This document shows positions 1 to 7,670 of a stretch of DNA of 7,670 bases, piece after piece. The position numbers were made by a program, and so were the translations under genes. Position 1 is the first letter of the stretch, and each line of letters begins with the position of its first letter. Below the pieces are notes generated by a model. It had not been told where the DNA came from and searched no databases. It worked only from the letters and a program-made list of their open reading frames with translations. Source of the stretch: Deltaproteobacteria bacterium RIFOXYA12_FULL_61_11 (GTDB lineage: Bacteria > Bdellovibrionota_F > JAHFAK01 > YA12-FULL-61-11); NCBI GenBank assembly GCA_001799195.1, contig MGSU01000136.1:1421-9090 (forward strand). The letters run 5' to 3'.

Positions 1-96
1 ATCCACCTGCTGCCAACCAGTTGCACGCAGATACTGGGCAATTTCCAACGGAGGTAGGGCTGCGATGGTTGCAGCATCGCGGATTGTCGCTTTCAT
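1..96 (-). CDS. 5' end of an unrecognised gene coupled to the DUF4365 gene (partial)
   Basis: Only the first 32 codons are inside the window; the reading frame is open to position 1. The protein begins MKATIRDAATIAALPPLEIA and continues QYLRATGWQQVD. Its ATG overlaps the TGA of the DUF4365 gene as ATGA, and a perfect AAGGAGGT ribosome-binding site lies 5 bases upstream, so the start is well supported despite the short length. The LRATGW segment resembles the N-terminus of a hypothetical family that I recall next to DUF4365 genes in other genomes; this is memory, not a search. No catalytic motif is visible in the available part. The coupling suggests it is made in step with DUF4365, perhaps as a partner or a control protein. 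Existence is likely; function is unknown. Confidence 0.7.
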   Translation of the reverse strand, partial: MKATIRDAATIAALPPLEIAQYLRATGWQQVD

Positions 97-590
97 GGAT
101 GACCTCCTTGGGTGATGCGCATCATGATAGCGGCCAGCGTGTTGCTGGAAAACTGTTGCGCACGTGGAATACGGACGCTGACGGTCATTTCGTTGTTGCT
201 ACTTTCGGAACCGCGCAATGCGGTCCAGTAAGCACAATGGCGAAGCAGTAATCGGCTGTGGTCAGCCTCAAGCCACTGTCCGACATCTGCAGGGACTAGC
301 ATGACCACAAGAATGCGGGGTACGAGCACATTCGGGTCGCGCAGATCGTCGTAATTCTTTTTTGGGAGAGAAAAGTTGAATTCCTCACGATCGAGGGGTT
401 CTCCAGCCGTGCATTTTGCCTGAATATCCAAGCGTGGCCGTGTTATCGCGCCATCTGCGTTCCTGCCCGAAATCGTCAAGTCGACGCTGTCATCATCGAC
501 ACTCGGCTCGCTGACCGCGAAACCAGCATCTGTAGCAACTGCACGGATGTAGGCAAAACTGAACTGCTCTTTTTTCAGATTGAGTTCCAT
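93..590 (-). CDS. DUF4365 domain protein, PD-(D/E)XK nuclease-like
   Basis: A 165-residue protein that I recognise by pattern as DUF4365. Diagnostic stretches are the N-terminal KEQFSFAYIRAVA, the acidic VDDDSVDL (31-38), RPRLDIQAK (51-59), the KNYDDLR block (78-84), VPRILVVMLVP (90-100), the HCAYWTALRG segment (118-127) and a C-terminal IMMRI. The spacing of D37 and Q57-x-K59 fits a PD-(D/E)XK-type active site with Gln in place of the usual acidic residue, as in Mrr-like nucleases; E8 could be a further metal ligand. Nuclease activity is an inference from motif layout. Length is normal for a single-domain member, so it looks intact. The ATG has AAGGG 7 bases upstream. It follows the SNF2 gene after 96 bases and overlaps the next gene by 4. 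Base composition looks lower in GC than the genes on the right of the window (31 of 60 in bases 301-360), which hints at transfer. Its role is probably a nuclease or DNA-binding part of a defence operon. Confidence 0.82.
   Translation of the reverse strand: MELNLKKEQFSFAYIRAVATDAGFAVSEPSVDDDSVDLTISGRNADGAITRPRLDIQAKCTAGEPLDREEFNFSLPKKNYDDLRDPNVLVPRILVVMLVPADVGQWLEADHSRLLLRHCAYWTALRGSESSNNEMTVSVRIPRAQQFSSNTLAAIMMRITQGGHP
102..109 (-). promoter_or_regulatory. Strong Shine-Dalgarno site for the partial gene at the left edge
   Basis: On the minus strand the sequence reads AAGGAGGT, a full match to the anti-Shine-Dalgarno core, 5 bases before the ATG at 96-94. It lies inside the last codons of the DUF4365 gene (the Gln-Gly-Gly-His stretch). 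It fixes the start of the downstream gene and suggests strong translation of it. Confidence 0.8.
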
Positions 591-686
591 TCGTCATCCC
601 TTAGAGCAAGAAAGAAGAGACCATTGTATAGAGCACATGCATGCGACCTAGGTCTAGCGTAGAAAAGAACAACCTGCGATTCTTGT
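591..686 (-). other. Intra-operon gap with two abutting palindromes and a TATACAAT box
   Basis: This is the only sizeable gap in the left operon. It holds CATGCATG (636-643) and GACCTAGGTC (645-654), both perfect palindromes one base apart. Further on, the minus strand carries TATACAAT (630-623), a possible -10 element, but no good -35 box is seen at the right distance. The Shine-Dalgarno site AAGGG (602-598) serves the DUF4365 gene. A secondary promoter or operator for the DUF4365 pair is possible but unproven. I saw no stem with a T-run that would end transcription. Confidence 0.35.
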
Positions 687-3593
687 TTATTCCCCCGCCT
701 CCTCCTGTGGCGAATTCGTCATATTTGAATCGCCCGCAAGCGTCCAGCGCAGCACGAAGACTGACGTGATGGCAGTTTTCGTCTTGAGCTCTCGCTCGAT
801 CTCTTCGATCAGCTCGGTCCGCTTCCGGTCAACGTCGTCCTGTGCGTCGAAGAGCTGCCGGCGCTTGGCGCTCCGTCTCATCTCAAGCGCCTTGATGAGC
901 TTTTGCGCTTCGAGCTTCTCGGCGAGCGCGACGGCTGACCTCGAGGTCTTCTTTGCAGCTTTGATCTGCGTATCGATCTCGCGAAGCTCTCGCTCGAGCC
1001 CGAACTTTACGTCCTCAGCCCAGCGTTCGAGCTTGTCGACCTCCTCCTCGAAGAACTTCTCGTTACGCATCCGGAGTTCCTGCAACCTGAAGTCGCACAG
1101 CTCGTCGCGGATCGCCGCGAGGACCGGAGACGCGGGGCCGGTGACTTCAGAGGTAATACGGCCACGCAATGAGAAGAGCTTGATCGCGACGTCGGACGTA
1201 AAGGGCCTGCCATCGGCATCACAGGCCGCGACGAGCAGGAACTCCTCAGCTCGCCCAACCGCTTCGGCGGTAAGCTTACTGACTTCGAGCCAACCGGATG
1301 TGCCGCGATACCGCTCCAACGCGCTGGCGTGCGGCTTGTAATCGAACGTCACCTCGGCGGGTGGCGTGCTCAGAGACGCTGCCTTCTCGATTATCTCCTG
1401 CGCGAGCGGGTGGTCGGTGCGAAAGAAGGTGTCGCCGAGCGCCTCGGCGCGCTGCCAGTCGAGGTGAAATCGTTGTTTCGGCTCGCCGGCTTGGGTCTTC
1501 ATCCGGAAGCGCGGCTCGCCGACGTCGAAGCTCGCGCGGTCCGCCAGCGCGAACTTGGAAAGGTCGAGCAGCATGCGCTGCTGCTCCCCTAGCGCCTCTT
1601 TGGCCTTGTCCTTGTGGACGCGTAGCCGCTCATGCACCTCGGCGTCGAAATTCTCGAGGAAGGCTCGCCTGGCGGTGTCGATACCGACCTTGATCTTCAC
1701 GTCGAGCTCGAGCTGGAGCGTGTCAAATGCGGTCTTGATCTGCTCCGGCGTGCGGCAGTCTTGGTAAATGGCAGAGATGCGCTTCTCGAGATCAACACCA
1801 CTCTCGACCACGCCGAGAACGTCGTCGCTGGCGCCGAAGACGCCCTTGAACAGATTGAATTTTTGATCAAGCAACTCAAAGACTCGGCGATCTGCTTCAT
1901 TCTTGCGATTCAGAAAATTCACCACAAGTACATCGGACTTCTGCCCGTACCGATGACAGCGGCCGATGCGCTGCTCGATGCGCTGCGGATTCCACGGCAG
2001 GTCATAGTTGACCACGATCGAGCAGAACTGGAGGTTCACGCCCTCCGCTGCCGACTCAGTAGCGAGCAAGAACGTCCCGCGCTCTCGGAACTCGTCGACG
2101 ATAGCGGCCTTCATGTCTGCCGATTTCGAGCCCGACGACACGTCCTCCCACCGATACTCGTTGCGCTTTTTCCACTCGGCGTAGGTGCTCTTCGAGGTCT
2201 CGTCGTTGTTCGAGCCATTCATGAGAACGATCTGACCATGGTAGCCGTTCTCGGTGAGGAGTCGGAACAGATACTCCTGCGTCTTGCACGACTCGGTGAA
2301 GATCACGGCCTTGCGCGCTGCCCCTTTCTCCTGGGCAAGCTCGAACGCCAGGGGCAGCACCTCGACCAGCTTGGTTGCTTTCGAATCCCGCTCAACGGCC
2401 TCCGCCAAAGCGACGAAGCGCTGCAGGTCGGCGAGTTCGGCCTTGGCTTGCAGCGCCTCCGTGCTCGCGGGGGGCGTTTCCTCCACCTTGCCGTCCTCGG
2501 ACCACTCCTCGTCGATCTCGCTCAGGGTCTCGAAGTCCTCGGCAAGCGTCTCCTCAATAGATACCGGCGGCTGAGCCTGCGACAAGGGGACTTTCATTTG
2601 CCCGGACAACCGCGCCACAAATTTTGTTAGTGTCGCACCGATCGCTGCTGAGGACGATGCGAGCAGCTTGCGCAGGATGAGCGTGATCAGCTTGCGCCGC
2701 GCATTGGGCAAGGCGACGAGCACTTCGCGCTGAAGATAGGCCGAGACCTCCTCGTAGAGCTGCTGCTCGGCGGCCGACGGGACGAAGTCGGCCGTATGGG
2801 TAAAGCGGTTGGTGAACGGGATGTACTCGAGCACCTGGCGCCGAAGCGTTCGCTTGCAGACATGCTGGATACGTTCGCGGAGCGCAACATCGCGCTGCGT
2901 CGGATCATCGTTAGCCAGAAACTGCGCCTGGAACGAGTCCTGGCCGCCGAAGAGGTCGGGATCGAGGATGCTGATAAGCCCGTAGAGCTCGAGGAGTGAG
3001 TTCTGGAGAGGGATCGCGGTGAGCAGCAGCTTGCGAGCTGGCCGAATGGAGTCAACGATTCCCTCGGCTGTCTTCGTGCCCTTGTAGATGCTACGAAGCC
3101 GGTGGGCTTCGTCAATGACCACGAGGTCCCAGTCGACGCGCTGCACCAGCTCGCGTTTCGCGTAAACGAATTGGTACGAGCAGATGACAATGCGGTCCGG
3201 GGCGAGGAACGGATTCGCGATGCCTTTCTTCGCAAGGGCATTGGCGGCTCGCGTTTCGAGGATAACTGAGGGAAGGAAGAACTTGTCTTCGAGTTCCACC
3301 TGCCACTGTTTGCGCAGAGTTGCAGGCACGATGAGCAAGATCCGCCGCCGCTCAGCCCACCTCTGCGCCAGAATCAGCGCGGCCTCGATCGTCTTGCCGA
3401 GGCCCACTTCGTCCGCGAGTAACACGCCCTTGGAGTAGGGAGAGCGCAGCGCGAACAGCGCTGCGTCGACCTGGTGCGGATTGAGATCGACCCGCGCGTT
3501 GCCGATCGATCGGGACAGCGCTTCGACGCCGTCACATGGATGCGCTAGCTGTAAACCGTGAGCCCAATACTTGGCGTGGAAGGGTGTGCTCAC
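687..3593 (-). CDS. SNF2-family helicase/translocase (DEAD/DEAH superfamily 2)
   Basis: A 968-residue Swi2/Snf2-type ATPase, counted from a GTG start. Walker A is ADEVGLGKT (60-68, Lys67), Walker B is DEAH (161-164), motif III is LTAIPLQN (191-198), motif V is ATESAAEGVNLQ (511-522) and motif VI is QRIGRCHRYGQ (541-551) with both arginines present. These motifs predict ATP-driven translocation on duplex DNA. An acidic linker (about 340-379) lies between the two RecA lobes. The C-terminal third ends in a long charged helical region (about 848-936), probably coiled coil, then a hydrophobic VFVLRW patch. I prefer GTG 3593 to the longer ATG at 3656: it gives the family-like start STPFHAKYWAHG, overlaps the HTH stop as GTGA, and has GAGGA 6 bases upstream, while the longer version adds only 21 low-complexity residues. 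In this family, motif III is normally TATP or TGTP, so Ile194 is odd. I recall similar helicases in defence loci with methylases and DUF4391 genes; neither is visible here. It is not recognisably DrmD of DISARM. Confidence 0.92.
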   Translation of the reverse strand: MSTPFHAKYWAHGLQLAHPCDGVEALSRSIGNARVDLNPHQVDAALFALRSPYSKGVLLADEVGLGKTIEAALILAQRWAERRRILLIVPATLRKQWQVELEDKFFLPSVILETRAANALAKKGIANPFLAPDRIVICSYQFVYAKRELVQRVDWDLVVIDEAHRLRSIYKGTKTAEGIVDSIRPARKLLLTAIPLQNSLLELYGLISILDPDLFGGQDSFQAQFLANDDPTQRDVALRERIQHVCKRTLRRQVLEYIPFTNRFTHTADFVPSAAEQQLYEEVSAYLQREVLVALPNARRKLITLILRKLLASSSAAIGATLTKFVARLSGQMKVPLSQAQPPVSIEETLAEDFETLSEIDEEWSEDGKVEETPPASTEALQAKAELADLQRFVALAEAVERDSKATKLVEVLPLAFELAQEKGAARKAVIFTESCKTQEYLFRLLTENGYHGQIVLMNGSNNDETSKSTYAEWKKRNEYRWEDVSSGSKSADMKAAIVDEFRERGTFLLATESAAEGVNLQFCSIVVNYDLPWNPQRIEQRIGRCHRYGQKSDVLVVNFLNRKNEADRRVFELLDQKFNLFKGVFGASDDVLGVVESGVDLEKRISAIYQDCRTPEQIKTAFDTLQLELDVKIKVGIDTARRAFLENFDAEVHERLRVHKDKAKEALGEQQRMLLDLSKFALADRASFDVGEPRFRMKTQAGEPKQRFHLDWQRAEALGDTFFRTDHPLAQEIIEKAASLSTPPAEVTFDYKPHASALERYRGTSGWLEVSKLTAEAVGRAEEFLLVAACDADGRPFTSDVAIKLFSLRGRITSEVTGPASPVLAAIRDELCDFRLQELRMRNEKFFEEEVDKLERWAEDVKFGLERELREIDTQIKAAKKTSRSAVALAEKLEAQKLIKALEMRRSAKRRQLFDAQDDVDRKRTELIEEIERELKTKTAITSVFVLRWTLAGDSNMTNSPQEEAGE

Positions 3594-3802
3594 TCGCTGT
3601 CCTCGTCGGTCTCCTTGCCTGCTTCGTCCTGACAGGCCCCGCCGGCGTGGACCCACTCGTCGAGCTCCGAGAGCCTGAACTTCCAGAGCCTGCCGATCCG
3701 TTTAGCGGGCAGGCTCTTCTGCTCGATTGAGCGGTAGACCGAGTCCTTGGCCTCGCCGAGGTGGCTCGCGACTTCGTCCACGGAAACCCAGGGTTCTGGC
3801 AT
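3590..3802 (-). CDS. Small excisionase-type helix-turn-helix protein (HTH_17-like)
   Basis: A 70-residue protein with one MerR/excisionase-like winged HTH: VSVDEVASHLGEAKDSVYRS (6-25) covers the recognition region, then LPAKRIGRLWKFRLSELDEW (31-50) gives the basic wing and the closing helix. The last 20 residues are an acidic tail (DEAGKETDEDSE). The ATG has AAGGA 6 bases upstream (3813-3809), and the TGA overlaps the GTG of the SNF2 gene. Proteins of this type either bind operators or help direct DNA recombination or targeting. With no integrase nearby, a role as operon regulator, or as DNA-targeting partner of the helicase, is more likely than prophage excision. It is the first gene of the operon, directly behind a good promoter. 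Confidence 0.88.
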   Translation of the reverse strand: MPEPWVSVDEVASHLGEAKDSVYRSIEQKSLPAKRIGRLWKFRLSELDEWVHAGGACQDEAGKETDEDSE

Positions 3803-3848
3803 CGTCTGTCCTTCGGGAAAGCGCTCTCCTCACCCACCGATCCGGGTG

Positions 3849-3877
3849 ACGATAGACCGACCGCTCACCTGCGTCAA
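3849..3877 (-). promoter_or_regulatory. Sigma70-type promoter for the HTH-SNF2 operon
   Basis: On the minus strand the sequence shows TTGACG (3877-3872), exactly 17 bases, then TATCGT (3854-3849). That is 5 of 6 matches to the -35 consensus and 4 of 6 to the -10 consensus at the ideal spacing. Transcription would start near 3842 and leave a leader of about 40 bases containing the AAGGA site of the HTH gene. No other candidate of equal quality was found in the divergent region. Sigma70 recognition in this organism is assumed. Confidence 0.6.
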
Positions 3878-3915
3878 TCTGCCCGGCCACACCCCACATG
3901 CTGCCCCTCTGGCAA

Positions 3916-3938
3916 TACCTGGTATCATCCAGTATCAT
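3916..3938. repeat. Overlapping inverted and direct repeats, possible operator
   Basis: Within the divergent region lie ATACC-T-GGTAT (3916-3926, a perfect 5-base inverted repeat) and two copies of GTATCAT (3922-3928 and 3932-3938) exactly 10 bases apart, which is one helical turn. CTGG and CCAG flank the first TATCAT as a short inverted repeat. Such a layout suits cooperative binding by a small HTH protein on one DNA face. The second TATCAT could also act as a -10 box for the plus-strand gene starting at 3969, with only a weak -35 (TGGCAA, 3910-3915) 17 bases upstream. Its function is inferred. Confidence 0.4.
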
Positions 3939-3968
3939 GAGCAGGATATTTCTTCCCCGGAGCAGCTC

Positions 3969-5009
3969 ATGAGGCGCACCTACCTTTGCAGCAAGGCGCT
4001 CGGATTCCTCCTACCCCTGTTCCTTGCCTGTGAGTTACTGTTCCCTCCCAACGAACAGTCCCCCACCCCGATCCACCCCACTTCGCCCTCGCCTGCACAG
4101 TCCACCGATGCCGAAGACCGACATATCACCATCGGAGAAATCCAGGTACCGCTCGCCTTCCTCCCCCTCGACCCGGCTCTCCCCAGCAGTGCAATCCCCT
4201 CGAACGCCTTGCCTTCAAACGCAATCCCGGCCAATGCCCAAGGAGATACCATCGACGAGGCAGAGCTCTCCCTTGAAGCGCCGGCAGTCGATTCCCCTGA
4301 CCAAACGCCTCCAATACCCAGCCTCGAGCCACCAGGTGAACCTGATCCTGTTCCGCCACCTCTGACCATCGACGGCGACAAACCCAGAGACGCCAGCTCC
4401 GATCAACTGACCGACGATCCCTCCACAGACCTTACTCCAGCACCTGACGGCTCAGCGACAAGCGACTCCGCCGACCCAAAACCCCAATTCCCGTACGCTA
4501 TTGAATACTTAGAACTCACCGCCCCTGAACATGCCTCGCCCTTGCCACCCGACCAAGTGAGCAACCTCGATCTCCTCGAGCTCAACTTCAAAGGAGAAGC
4601 TTTACCTCTCTCCTTTCTGGCCCTTTCTTTCCACATCACCATTGACGGGACCGACCAAGCCCCCATCCTCGAATACCCCTTGCTCGGTTTCGTCTTCAAG
4701 AACCCCCGTCTCCTGCGCCGGGAGGAAGGAACCTTGAAAAAGATTCCGGGCGCGTTCTCCGCGAATGAAGACCGAACAGGGAACCCGAACTCGTACTGCT
4801 TCGATCTGATCCTCCCCATGGCGAAGGATCCCTATCCCCTCAACGATTTGACCTTGCGCGTCGATCGCGTCAACGAAGAACTCGGCCCTGGAGAGGAGTT
4901 CACCGTAACGGTGACCTACAACCTCTATGTGGAACACGAGGATACCTGTTACGTGCTCAGCGGGGCGACTCACACAGAGGATGGAGCGCTCGCTATCGCT
5001 TCACGATAA
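3969..5009 (+). CDS. Putative proline-rich lipoprotein of unknown function
   Basis: A 346-residue protein. The start at ATG 3969 is supported by GGAG 6 bases upstream and by a signal sequence: basic MRR, hydrophobic core LGFLLPLFLA, then Cys21. LFLAC fits a relaxed lipobox, though position -3 is Phe and not the usual Leu. The frame stays open upstream, but that part overlaps the HTH gene on the other strand and has no signal sequence. Residues 22-175 are low-complexity, rich in Pro, Ser and Asp, and probably extended or disordered. They contain a short five-residue repeat (74-90). Residues 176-346 look like a folded, beta-rich domain (alternating segments such as FHITIDG and FTVTVTYNLYVE) with two cysteines, 277 and 327, that could form a disulfide. 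I do not recognise a family. It probably sits in the envelope with the proline-rich part as a stalk. It is divergent from the HTH operon and 69 bases before a HAD phosphatase. Confidence 0.78.
   Translation: MRRTYLCSKALGFLLPLFLACELLFPPNEQSPTPIHPTSPSPAQSTDAEDRHITIGEIQVPLAFLPLDPALPSSAIPSNALPSNAIPANAQGDTIDEAELSLEAPAVDSPDQTPPIPSLEPPGEPDPVPPPLTIDGDKPRDASSDQLTDDPSTDLTPAPDGSATSDSADPKPQFPYAIEYLELTAPEHASPLPPDQVSNLDLLELNFKGEALPLSFLALSFHITIDGTDQAPILEYPLLGFVFKNPRLLRREEGTLKKIPGAFSANEDRTGNPNSYCFDLILPMAKDPYPLNDLTLRVDRVNEELGPGEEFTVTVTYNLYVEHEDTCYVLSGATHTEDGALAIASR
4188..4238 (+). repeat. Degenerate 15-base tandem repeat encoding [SN]A[IL]P[SA]
   Basis: Inside the putative lipoprotein, residues 74-90 read SAIPS, NALPS, NAIPA, NA: three units and the start of a fourth. 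Codons differ between units (AAC/AAT, GCA/GCC, ATC/TTG, TCG/TCA), so the repeat is conserved at protein level more than at DNA level, which suggests an old repeat and not recent slippage. Similar NAL-type short repeats are, as I recall, found in some myxobacterial surface proteins. Confidence 0.6.
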
Positions 5010-5078
5010 TACGCCTGCACAGAGAGACCGCTTGAAGAGAGCAACCTTCCCTTGCCACCGCCGCTGAGGTCCATGCAG

Positions 5079-5756
5079 ATGCATTGTCTTCCCCTTCCCC
5101 GACACGTCATCTGGGACTGGAACGGGACGCTCCTCGACGACGTCGCGCTCTGCGTTGAGGTCATGGACGGGATGCTCCGGGCCCGCGGATTGCCGGGCCT
5201 CGACGTCCAGAGATACCGCGAGGTCTTCGATTTTCCAGTGATCGAATACTACCGTCGGCTCGGCTTCGACTTCGAGGTCGAGCCCTTCTCCGAGGTCGGC
5301 ACCGAGTTCATCGTCACCTATGAACGCCGCCGCCACGAGGCTCCGTTGAGGGCGGGAGCGGTGGAAGTCCTACACCGCCTCCGCGCTGCAGGGGTGACCC
5401 AATCCTTGCTCTCCGCGTACCGGCAGGAGAGCTTGGAGCAACTGATCAGGACGCACGGGCTGGAAACCCATTTCCTGGCCTTGCGCGGTCTCGGAGACCA
5501 CTACGCCCACGGCAAGCAGGAACTCGGGCTCCGCCATCTCGCGGAATTGCCCTATGCTCGGGAAGAGATCGTGCTCGTGGGCGACACCGTGCACGACCAC
5601 GAGGTGGCAACCCTGCTCGGCCTGCGCGCCTTCCTGCTCACCGATGGCCACCAAGCAGCCTCGAGATTGGCGACCTCGGGCCGCCCCCTCCTCGCCGAGC
5701 TCCGAGCCCTCCCCTCCGTGCTGGGGCTCGAATGCATGATGCAAACTACCTCCTGA
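5079..5756 (+). CDS. HAD-superfamily hydrolase, phosphoglycolate phosphatase-like
   Basis: A 225-residue protein with all four HAD motifs. Motif I is DWNGT (Asp13 nucleophile; Asn15 in the place of the usual second Asp), motif II is LLSAY (Ser112), motif III is Lys146 in AHGKQELG, and motif IV is VGDTVHD (Asp169, Asp173). Residues about 22-90 between motifs I and II form a helical C1 cap as in Gph/PpaX-type phosphatases. It should be a soluble cytoplasmic Mg2+-dependent phosphatase for a small phosphorylated metabolite; the substrate cannot be read from sequence. Asn in motif I is known in several HAD phosphatase subgroups but leaves the acid/base step less certain. ATG 5079 has TGAGG 9 bases upstream; ATG 5073 is only 3 bases from that site, and a TTG at 5052 would add nine residues. 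It lies 69 bases after the lipoprotein gene with no terminator seen, so co-transcription is possible though no functional link is evident. Confidence 0.88.
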   Translation: MHCLPLPRHVIWDWNGTLLDDVALCVEVMDGMLRARGLPGLDVQRYREVFDFPVIEYYRRLGFDFEVEPFSEVGTEFIVTYERRRHEAPLRAGAVEVLHRLRAAGVTQSLLSAYRQESLEQLIRTHGLETHFLALRGLGDHYAHGKQELGLRHLAELPYAREEIVLVGDTVHDHEVATLLGLRAFLLTDGHQAASRLATSGRPLLAELRALPSVLGLECMMQTTS

Positions 5757-5989: not shown

Positions 5990-6934
5990 ATGCGGTCGCT
6001 CGTCGCTCTGCTTACCCTGGTTTTTTCCGCGTCACCGATCGCCCGCGCCGAGGTGTGCGAGGAAGCCTTCACCGCCCAGGGCGCCGACGCGGCCCTATGC
6101 CGAAAACTTGAAACCAGCGCCGCCCTCGCTTGCGCCCTGATCGCCCTGGAACGACTGGAACCTGCGCTGTCGCCGGACGAGGTCGTCGAGCGTTGCTCAG
6201 AGGTCCAACAGGTCGAGATCCCGACCTGCATGACCATCGCCTCGGAGCGCCACAAGAAGCTCGACCACGAGGCCTTCGAGACCTGCCTGGACACAACGGG
6301 CTATTTCGCCGACGCCGCCACCCTCGGCGATCTGGAAAAAGCCCTGACCACCTTCGAGGGCGTGTGCCGGCCGGACGAGGTGCGTCATCATCTCGAGCGG
6401 AAGTCCGACTTCGACGCCCTGCGCCTGAAGAACAACGTTGTCGCCGTGGCCAGCCTGGCCGCGGTCGTGGGGCTGCCAATTGCCGCAATCCTGGGTTGCA
6501 GCCTCGGCGACCCAGGTCCGATCCTCACCGCGATCGCCAATATTCCTGGGGCGTTGAGCCTGTTCATCGTCGGCCCGATCATGTACGGTCTCGGGTACTC
6601 GGTCAAGGCCGAGGCCGTGATCCGGGCAAGGAGACACCTCGCCGCTCGGGCCGAAGCCGAGCTCGAGCGCTTCGAGGTCGCCCTGCGCGAGGTCCTCGAC
6701 CGCCTGATCTCCCGGGACCCCGAACTCGCCGCCCGTCTGGGGAAAGTCGTGGAGGTCCGCCTCGAGGTGTTGCCCGGCGAGACCGGTCTGGCCTTCTTCA
6801 AAGAGGTTACGTTCCAACAGGGGCGTACCCGGCACCTCGTCCGCCCCGAATTTGAGCCCGGCCGCGGCACGGTCCTCGCGCTCTACAAAGACAACCTGCT
6901 CCTGGACAAGCGCCTCGGGGTCCTGGAGCGCTGA
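5990..6934 (+). CDS. Exported protein with a membrane hairpin, unknown function
   Basis: A 314-residue protein. GGAGG (5980-5984) sits 5 bases before the ATG. Residues 1-20 form a Sec signal peptide (MRS, then LVALLTLVF, ending in ARA before Glu21), so cleavage by signal peptidase I is likely. The exported part (21-148) is helical and has seven cysteines (23, 37, 48, 69, 80, 99, 126), most in short helix-like segments, consistent with disulfides. Residues about 149-172 and 178-204 are two hydrophobic stretches joined by a short GDPG turn, a membrane hairpin with Cys170 in it. Residues 205-245 are a charged helix (AARAEAELERFEVALREVLD), and the C-terminus is a small alpha/beta-like segment. 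I recognise no family. Since both ends lie on one side of a hairpin, and the signal is cleavable, the domains before and after would both be periplasmic. It stands apart from the HAD gene behind its own likely promoter. Confidence 0.8.
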   Translation: MRSLVALLTLVFSASPIARAEVCEEAFTAQGADAALCRKLETSAALACALIALERLEPALSPDEVVERCSEVQQVEIPTCMTIASERHKKLDHEAFETCLDTTGYFADAATLGDLEKALTTFEGVCRPDEVRHHLERKSDFDALRLKNNVVAVASLAAVVGLPIAAILGCSLGDPGPILTAIANIPGALSLFIVGPIMYGLGYSVKAEAVIRARRHLAARAEAELERFEVALREVLDRLISRDPELAARLGKVVEVRLEVLPGETGLAFFKEVTFQQGRTRHLVRPEFEPGRGTVLALYKDNLLLDKRLGVLER

Positions 6935-7015: not shown

Positions 7016-7670
7016 TCACCAATCCTGTAACCGGAACAGTTCGAGCGGGATCTCGCGGCGAACCCTGGTCAGGTAGTGCAAGCGATAGGAGGCTTCGGCC
7101 GCGGGGTCGAAGAAGAGGACTTCGGCCGGACCGTCCGGCCCGTGTTCGCGATAGCGCACGGCAAGAGAGAGTTTTCCCCGGCCGTCATACAGTTCGCACC
7201 CCTGCAACACCGAAGATCCGACGGCCTCCACCAGCCGTTGGACCGGCTTTCCCCGGAGGATGAATTCGTGGAGGCGCAGCAACCGCCCCTGCCCATCCCT
7301 GCCCTCGGCCATACGCCAGACCTCGTGATCGGCCACGAACGGTCGACCCGAGAGCAGGGCCAGCAACCATGCGGTCGGTACGCCGGCAAGGGGAAGAGGA
7401 ACGCCGGCGAGGTCGGAGAGCTCTCCCCTCCGAACACGTCCTGAGGGGAGTTCCAGGAGTTCGAAACGTCTACCGACCAGCGCCAGTTTATGGACAGGCC
7501 TGCCGAAAGCCAAGGTCTCGATCAGCAGATGCTCCGGGGGTTGCAGGAGGAGGATCTGCATCACCTCGAGCCCTTCCCCCGCACGTTCGACCTCAGCCCT
7601 CGCCGTGGCGGCGAAAGCCTCGATCCGACCGGCCCAGGACCGCAAGGCCACCCGATGTGTTTCGGCAAGC
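7016..7670 (-). CDS. LolB/DUF4292-like outer-membrane lipoprotein-type protein (5' end outside the window)
   Basis: 217 complete codons plus the stop are visible; the frame stays open to the right edge (reading LAETHR before the GTG at 7651), so the true start and any lipoprotein signal probably lie beyond 7670. The visible part opens with an amphipathic helix and strands of the type found in LolB/LolA-fold lipoproteins: RIEAFAATARAEVERAG, then LLLQPPEHLLIETLAFGRPV, LALVGRRFELLELPSGRVRR, and LAGVPLPLAGVPTAWLLALL before SGRPF. This order (strand pair, a Pro-rich 'rendering lipid' turn, then a helix and GRP) matches DUF4292-type proteins as I remember them, and would imply lipoprotein or lipid handling at the envelope. 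The C-terminal half is less diagnostic. It converges on the 5990 gene with 81 bases between stops; its TGA falls inside a weak GGTGA/TCACC hairpin. Confidence 0.6.
   Translation of the reverse strand, partial: LAETHRVALRSWAGRIEAFAATARAEVERAGEGLEVMQILLLQPPEHLLIETLAFGRPVHKLALVGRRFELLELPSGRVRRGELSDLAGVPLPLAGVPTAWLLALLSGRPFVADHEVWRMAEGRDGQGRLLRLHEFILRGKPVQRLVEAVGSSVLQGCELYDGRGKLSLAVRYREHGPDGPAEVLFFDPAAEASYRLHYLTRVRREIPLELFRLQDW

What the first reader, a model, noticed from the sequence alone, without database searches (positions are those of the whole stretch)
1..3802. Compact HTH, SNF2 helicase, DUF4365 operon: candidate undescribed defence module
Seen: four genes in one direction, two 4-base overlaps, and a good promoter. 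Known: SNF2 translocases recur in anti-phage systems, and DUF4365 has a nuclease-like motif layout. Inference: the HTH protein targets or regulates, SNF2 moves on DNA, and the DUF4365 protein cuts or binds. No methylase, Res subunit, DrmA/B/C or BREX gene is visible, so self/non-self recognition is unexplained. The set could also be the end of a known methylase-containing locus cut by the left edge.
Basis: partly seen in the sequence, partly recalled or inferred. Interest (0 to 1): 0.75.

Follow-up and report, generated by a model that had tools for sequence, protein, structure and literature searches.

The report
Restriction operon with embedded nuclease module
The HTH, helicase and DUF4365 genes are the front half of a bacterial DNA restriction-modification operon whose methylase and cutting enzyme sit on another contig; DUF4365 and the next gene are an already listed candidate anti-phage pair nested inside it, and that nesting is the only unusual part.

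Summary
In detail: four co-directional minus-strand genes, two 4-base overlaps and a promoter-like site. The main interpretation, a self-contained methylase-free module, does not hold. The SNF2 gene belongs to a family followed by a type III-like methylase in 67 of 68 testable relatives, normally with a Res subunit next. In this genome Mod and Res lie at the edge of contig C49. The two contig edges carry the two halves of one YhcG/DUF1016 gene, missing about 17 residues. Inferred operon: HTH > SNF2 > DUF4365 > M02B > mod scar > YhcG > mod scar > Mod > RhuM > Res. DUF4365 plus the cut-off fourth gene is PADLOC's candidate pair PDC-M02, stand-alone elsewhere and present in 20 of 377 genomes of the myxobacterial phylum. 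It lies inside or flush with restriction operons in at least four lineages: two type I operons between hsdS and hsdR, and two SNF2-Mod-Res operons including this one. At least 24 SNF2 relatives carry other, mostly defence-type, genes between SNF2 and Mod. Most likely: a three-subunit restriction system with a nested two-gene nuclease effector. New variant of a known kind; mechanism inferred.

The parts
3590..3802 (-). HTH_17/excisionase-type DNA-binding protein, 70 aa, first gene; likely regulator
   Evidence: Pfam HTH_17 1.5e-11; TIGR01764 above cut-off, MAD1 model below cut-off. An HTH precedes SNF2 in 14 of 75 relatives by profile, and 5 others have a 290-317 aa protein there; the one scanned has a WYL domain
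687..3593 (-). SNF2 translocase subunit, 968 aa, of the SNF2-Mod-Res restriction system
   Evidence: SNF2-rel_dom 8.3e-33, Helicase_C 3.2e-18; up to 79% identical to the SNF2 of SNF2-Mod-Res operons in Polyangiaceae MAGs
93..590 (-). DUF4365 protein = PADLOC PDC-M02A, predicted PD-(D/E)XK-type nuclease; D37, Q57, K59 invariant in 7 relatives
   Evidence: DUF4365 4.5e-25; PDC-M02A 1.4e-60; alignment A1
1..96 (-). First codons of PDC-M02B (376 aa, C136:1516-386 with a 17-N assembly gap), 4-base overlap with DUF4365
   Evidence: PDC-M02B 9.1e-112 on the unambiguous part; sequence
3849..3877 (-). Promoter-like site TTGACG-17-TATCGT ahead of the HTH gene
   Evidence: 9 of 12 matches; consensus match only

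Best explanation
The window holds the promoter-proximal half of a roughly 13-kb restriction-modification operon. Core: HTH - SNF2 - Mod - Res. Mod (an N6/N4-type amino-methyltransferase with DPPY) marks self DNA. Res (helicase plus a PD..ExK-like endonuclease end) cuts unmodified DNA. SNF2 is a third, ATP-driven subunit that most likely translocates on or remodels the target DNA or the complex. The HTH gene most likely regulates transcription. Nested inside the operon are accessory genes, each found alone elsewhere: PDC-M02A/B (DUF4365 nuclease plus partner), YhcG/DUF1016 and RhuM. M02A is most likely a conditional DNase. M02B, which almost always accompanies it and has a weak C-terminal OB-fold signal, is most likely its sensor, controller or DNA-binding partner. 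Co-transcription puts this second effector behind or beside restriction, acting on what escapes or inactivates the restriction enzyme. Shown: gene content, order, intact motifs, recurrence. Inferred: contig join, co-transcription, enzyme activities, backup role.
For: Mod immediately or shortly after SNF2 in 66 of 68 relatives with enough sequence, plus a Mod start at the contig end in a 67th. Annotated plasmids show HTH-SNF2-[cargo]-Mod-[cargo]-Res. This genome's only close Mod and Res are adjacent at the C49 edge, PADLOC MTase_III 9e-210 and REase_III 4e-223. C136 ends in a YhcG N-terminus and C49 begins with a YhcG C-terminus; the only other YhcG_C in the genome is inside contig C20; about 17 residues are missing against L161 YhcG (by inspection). 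M02A directly precedes M02B in 20 of 20 myxobacterial loci and in 17 of 18 other loci with upstream sequence. M02 in or flush with restriction operons: L161, L171, L172. Cargo between SNF2 and Mod includes AIPR, GmrSD, Abi_C, AbiEi, Bro-N, KilA-N, PLD, AAA_15 and Schlafen genes. A DUF4365 protein with the same QxK site degrades DNA when activated by its short-Argonaute partner (PMC10810196).
Against: The C136-C49 junction is not in the assembly; it rests on matching gene halves and conserved order. M02 is not found in the other 80 SNF2 loci and is mostly stand-alone, so nesting may be opportunistic insertion without functional coupling. I know of no assay of PDC-M02. M02B has no confident fold, and the AlphaFold model of M02A had pLDDT 37, so it says nothing.
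Confidence: 0.8

Rival explanations
1. HTH, SNF2, DUF4365 and M02B form one four-subunit, methylase-free defence system, and the Mod/Res genes are a separate neighbour.
For: They are contiguous and overlapping in the window. One myxobacterial locus, L174, has a distant SNF2 gene directly followed by M02A/M02B with no Mod nearby.
Against: SNF2 tracks with Mod in 67 of 68 relatives, none of which has M02. M02A/B occurs without SNF2 in nearly all loci. The L174 SNF2 is only about 30% identical, is closer to a different DrmD model, and its M02A copy carries an in-frame stop.
Confidence: 0.07
2. It is a DISARM, BREX-related or MADS locus missing or having lost genes.
For: SNF2 matches DrmD models strongly (2.6e-196) and the HTH matches MAD1 weakly.
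Against: The NCBIfam DrmD scores are below cut-off (651.6 against 950; 245 against 610), MAD1 is 50.8 against 80, and no DrmA/B/C, DUF499 ATPase, PglZ or MAD2-8 gene was seen in either contig.
Confidence: 0.05
3. The nested genes are inert passengers or decaying insertions: the operon is a hitch-hiking site and M02, YhcG and RhuM work independently or not at all.
For: Two truncated mod copies (26 and 115 codons) flank YhcG, a sign of recombination debris. Nested genes have lower G+C (M02A 0.53, RhuM 0.56) than SNF2, Res or flanks (0.61-0.62). Several M02A genes elsewhere carry in-frame TAG stops.
Against: In this genome the nested genes are open (YhcG apart from the contig gap), several overlap their neighbours by 4 bases, and key motifs are conserved. 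The same slot is filled in at least 24 of 68 relatives, mainly by defence-type genes.
Confidence: 0.3

Closest known systems
Type III restriction-modification (Mod/Res)
   Same: Mod and Res of C49 match PADLOC MTase_III and REase_III; adjacent, co-directional
   Different: A third SNF2 subunit is standard here, often with a leading HTH or WYL gene; nested effector genes
PDC-M02 (PADLOC candidate, DUF4365 + M02B)
   Same: Both genes, order, overlap and size match
   Different: Elsewhere mostly a stand-alone pair; here nested between SNF2 and Mod
BREX and BREX-related loci with auxiliary nucleases (PMC12839542)
   Same: Accessory nucleases (GmrSD, OLD-type, Schlafen, PD-(D/E)XK) encoded inside a methylase-containing core operon
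   Different: No BrxC/DUF499 ATPase or PglZ; core is SNF2-Mod-Res
DISARM class 1 (DrmD)
   Same: SNF2 helicase related to DrmD, with an amino-methyltransferase
   Different: No DrmA, DrmB or DrmC; NCBIfam DrmD cut-off not met
Short Argonaute systems with DUF4365-APAZ effector (PMC10810196)
   Same: DUF4365 nuclease domain with QxK active site, partner-controlled
   Different: No Argonaute or APAZ domain; partner is M02B

Membership tests
Type III restriction-modification (extended SNF2 form) | Mod N6/N4 methylase gene | tested here: met
   C49:1255-2994, N6_N4_Mtase 7.4e-46, MTase_III 9.4e-210; on another contig
Type III restriction-modification (extended SNF2 form) | Res helicase-endonuclease gene next to mod, same strand | tested here: met
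   C49:4043-6790, ResIII 1.2e-21, REase_III 4e-223, RhuM gene between
Type III restriction-modification (extended SNF2 form) | Linked to the window's SNF2 gene | tested here: inconclusive
   Two halves of one YhcG gene at the two contig edges and conserved order in relatives; junction not sequenced
Type III restriction-modification (extended SNF2 form) | ATP-dependent cleavage of unmodified DNA at a site that Mod methylates | not testable with these tools
   Needs enzyme assay and methylome
PDC-M02 | DUF4365 gene (M02A) immediately followed by M02B | tested here: met
DISARM | DrmA, DrmB, DrmC core | tested here: not met
   None recognised among the ORFs of C136:1-9200 and C49:1-10000; SNF2 below NCBIfam DrmD cut-off
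BREX-related (BR) | DUF499 ATPase | tested here: not met
   No such gene recognised in either contig stretch; feature from PMC12839542
MADS | MAD1 with MAD2-MAD8 | tested here: not met
   MAD1 model 50.8 bits against cut-off 80; no other MAD gene seen

The most novel reading that the evidence does not exclude
PDC-M02 is a portable nuclease pair that plugs into restriction systems of different types and is switched on when restriction is evaded or inhibited, and SNF2-Mod-Res operons have a dedicated slot for such exchangeable second-line effectors.
Probability: 0.3. Interest if true: 0.7.

Novelty: new variant of a known kind. Interest (0 to 1): 0.42.

Why it matters
It moves an apparently unguided SNF2/DUF4365 set into a system with a clear self/non-self rule. 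It gives PDC-M02, so far a catalogue entry, a recurrent genomic setting: inside or flush with type I and type III-like restriction operons in at least four lineages. It also shows that the SNF2-Mod interval of a widespread restriction operon is a slot for exchangeable defence genes, as recently described for BREX. That makes a direct test possible: does the nested nuclease act only when restriction fails?

Tried and rejected
Searches of viral contigs for M02A/M02B found nothing, and alignment queries were too diverse. Profile search of PDB with M02B gave one weak, unconvincing hit (RsbR, E 0.024); M02A gave only sub-threshold EcoRV hits over the active-site region. AlphaFold on M02A alone was low confidence (pLDDT 37), so no fold search was made. 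The idea that truncated mod copies are a general border mark of nested genes was rejected: a second Mod start was seen in only one of the relatives, L044, and there both Mods are complete. No RNA family in the window. The literature library holds no paper naming PDC-M02, and I found none describing the SNF2-Mod-Res slot; the library is incomplete, so this is weak.

Full report
Observation. The window (G000:C136:1421-9090) carries on its minus strand HTH_17 (3802-3590), SNF2 (3593-687), DUF4365 (590-93) and the first 32 codons of a further gene (96 leftwards). HTH/SNF2 and DUF4365/fourth gene overlap by 4 bases each. A promoter-like site lies 47 bases ahead of the HTH.

What lies to the left. 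The contig continues for 1,420 bases. The fourth gene is 376 aa, with a 17-N assembly gap, and matches PADLOC PDC-M02B at 9e-112; DUF4365 matches PDC-M02A at 1e-60. Next comes a 61-codon ORF whose first 26 codons are the 5' end of a type III-like mod gene (71 of 78 bases identical to the resident mod), followed by unrelated sequence. Overlapping that is the N-terminus of a YhcG/DUF1016 gene, cut by the contig end.

The missing methylase. Searching the same genome with a relative's Mod and Res gave one place, contig C49, apart from the 26-codon scar. C49 begins with the C-terminal 301 residues of a YhcG gene. It then has a 115-codon mod remnant, a complete Mod (579 aa), RhuM (351 aa) and Res (915 aa), all in one direction. 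The only other YhcG_C match in the genome lies inside contig C20. Against a complete YhcG from L161, the C49 part aligns at 61% identity, and by inspection about 17 residues are missing between the two edges. The join is therefore inferred, not sequenced. Motifs read directly from the sequence are intact: SNF2 DEVGLGKT, DEAH and RIGRCHRYGQ; Mod DPPY and FAGSGTTG; Res GVGKT, DEAH and a PDF..EPK-like end.

Core system. A scan of 84,980 species genomes gave 80 loci with SNF2 relatives (42-86% identity). Of 68 with at least 1.6 kb after SNF2, 66 have Mod downstream on the same strand and a 67th (L084) has the Mod start at its contig end. The exception, L089, has a truncated SNF2. A Res-type or long second-helicase gene follows Mod in nearly all that reach that far. 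Annotated plasmids give the same picture: Planctomycetes K2D, Salmonella pR18.1595 (with an Abi gene between SNF2 and Mod) and Rhizobium p7 (DUF262 between Mod and Res). The first position is taken by a small HTH in 14 of 75 loci. In five others it is taken by a 290-317 aa family; the one member scanned has a WYL domain, the domain of known defence repressors (PMC9122601, abstract only). This favours a regulatory role for the HTH.

A slot for nested genes. At least 24 loci (27 by a laxer count) have one to three extra genes between SNF2 and Mod, and about seven between Mod and Res. Those scanned are AIPR (AbiU-like), GmrSD, Abi_C, AbiEi, Bro-N, Bro-N-Fic, KilA-N, PLD-like, AAA_15, DUF2130, subtilase, Schlafen, TIR and RhuM. 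The window genome has PDC-M02A/B, YhcG (PDC-S02) and RhuM (PDC-S05). RhuM sits between Mod and Res in L051 too.

PDC-M02. It is a two-gene unit: M02A lies directly ahead of M02B in all 20 myxobacterial loci fetched and in 17 of 18 other loci with upstream sequence, on plasmids, chromosomes and at the end of a Mycobacterium prophage. It is found in 20 of 377 genomes of the phylum of L018, but in only 6 of 386 of the window's broad relatives. In three of the 20 it lies in or flush with a restriction operon: HsdM-HsdS-[M02A-M02B-YhcG]-HsdR (L161), HsdM-HsdS-[M02A-M02B]-HsdR (L171) and SNF2-Mod-Res-[M02A-M02B] (L172). L161 has the same M02A-M02B-YhcG order as the window genome. Restriction operons fill well under 1% of a genome (my estimate), so 3 of 20 plus the window is unlikely to be chance; no formal test was made. 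The 80 other SNF2 loci hold no M02, so here it was recruited into the slot.

Mechanism. DUF4365 was shown in a short-Argonaute system to be a QxK nuclease that degrades DNA nonspecifically when its partner recognises a target (PMC10810196). M02A keeps D37, Q57 and K59 in all seven aligned members. M02B has only a sub-threshold OB-fold match (0.0082). I infer that M02A is a conditional DNase held or aimed by M02B, co-expressed with a Mod/Res/SNF2 restriction system as a second line. The alternative, that nested genes are passengers, is kept at 0.3; it concerns the nested genes only and can be true together with the restriction-operon reading. The recurrent finding of auxiliary nucleases within BREX cores (PMC12839542, section 35) is the closest described parallel.

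Verdict. The finding is real, but it is the front half of a known kind of system with an already catalogued candidate nested inside. The recurrence of PDC-M02 in restriction operons is the part worth following.

Noticed in passing
L160, L163, L174, L110, L176 (M02A genes): Five M02A (DUF4365) genes of about 38 carry exactly one in-frame TAG, at five different positions, with the rest of the gene and M02B open; no M02B match showed an inside stop. Suggests repeated inactivation of the nuclease subunit.
   Followed up: partly
window 3636-3767 and L006 3262-3471 (G000:C63): A second small HTH gene, 65% identical in protein (84% in DNA over 132 bases) to the window's, leads a type I restriction operon with a nested KilA-N-like gene, next to a DUF2924-like gene and a large serine recombinase, in the same genome.
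   Followed up: partly
L100 903-1250 and L005 196-381: Two truncated copies of the mod 5' end (115 and 26 codons) lie either side of YhcG; the 115-codon one starts like the Polyangiaceae Mods (MTNRLKR), the 26-codon one like the resident Mod. Looks like traces of mod exchange.
   Followed up: partly
L022, L026, L029, L032, L033 and others: A serine recombinase family occurs in 12 of the fetched SNF2 loci within about 10 kb, perhaps the means of movement.
   Followed up: no
L172 14764-15707: Two further genes (115 and 199 aa, the latter HEPN-like by eye, no Pfam match) between SNF2 and Mod.
   Followed up: no
window 5990-6934, 7016-7669 and 3747-5009: Three ORFs to the right of the operon without any Pfam match; 5052-5756 is a HAD hydrolase.
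   Followed up: no
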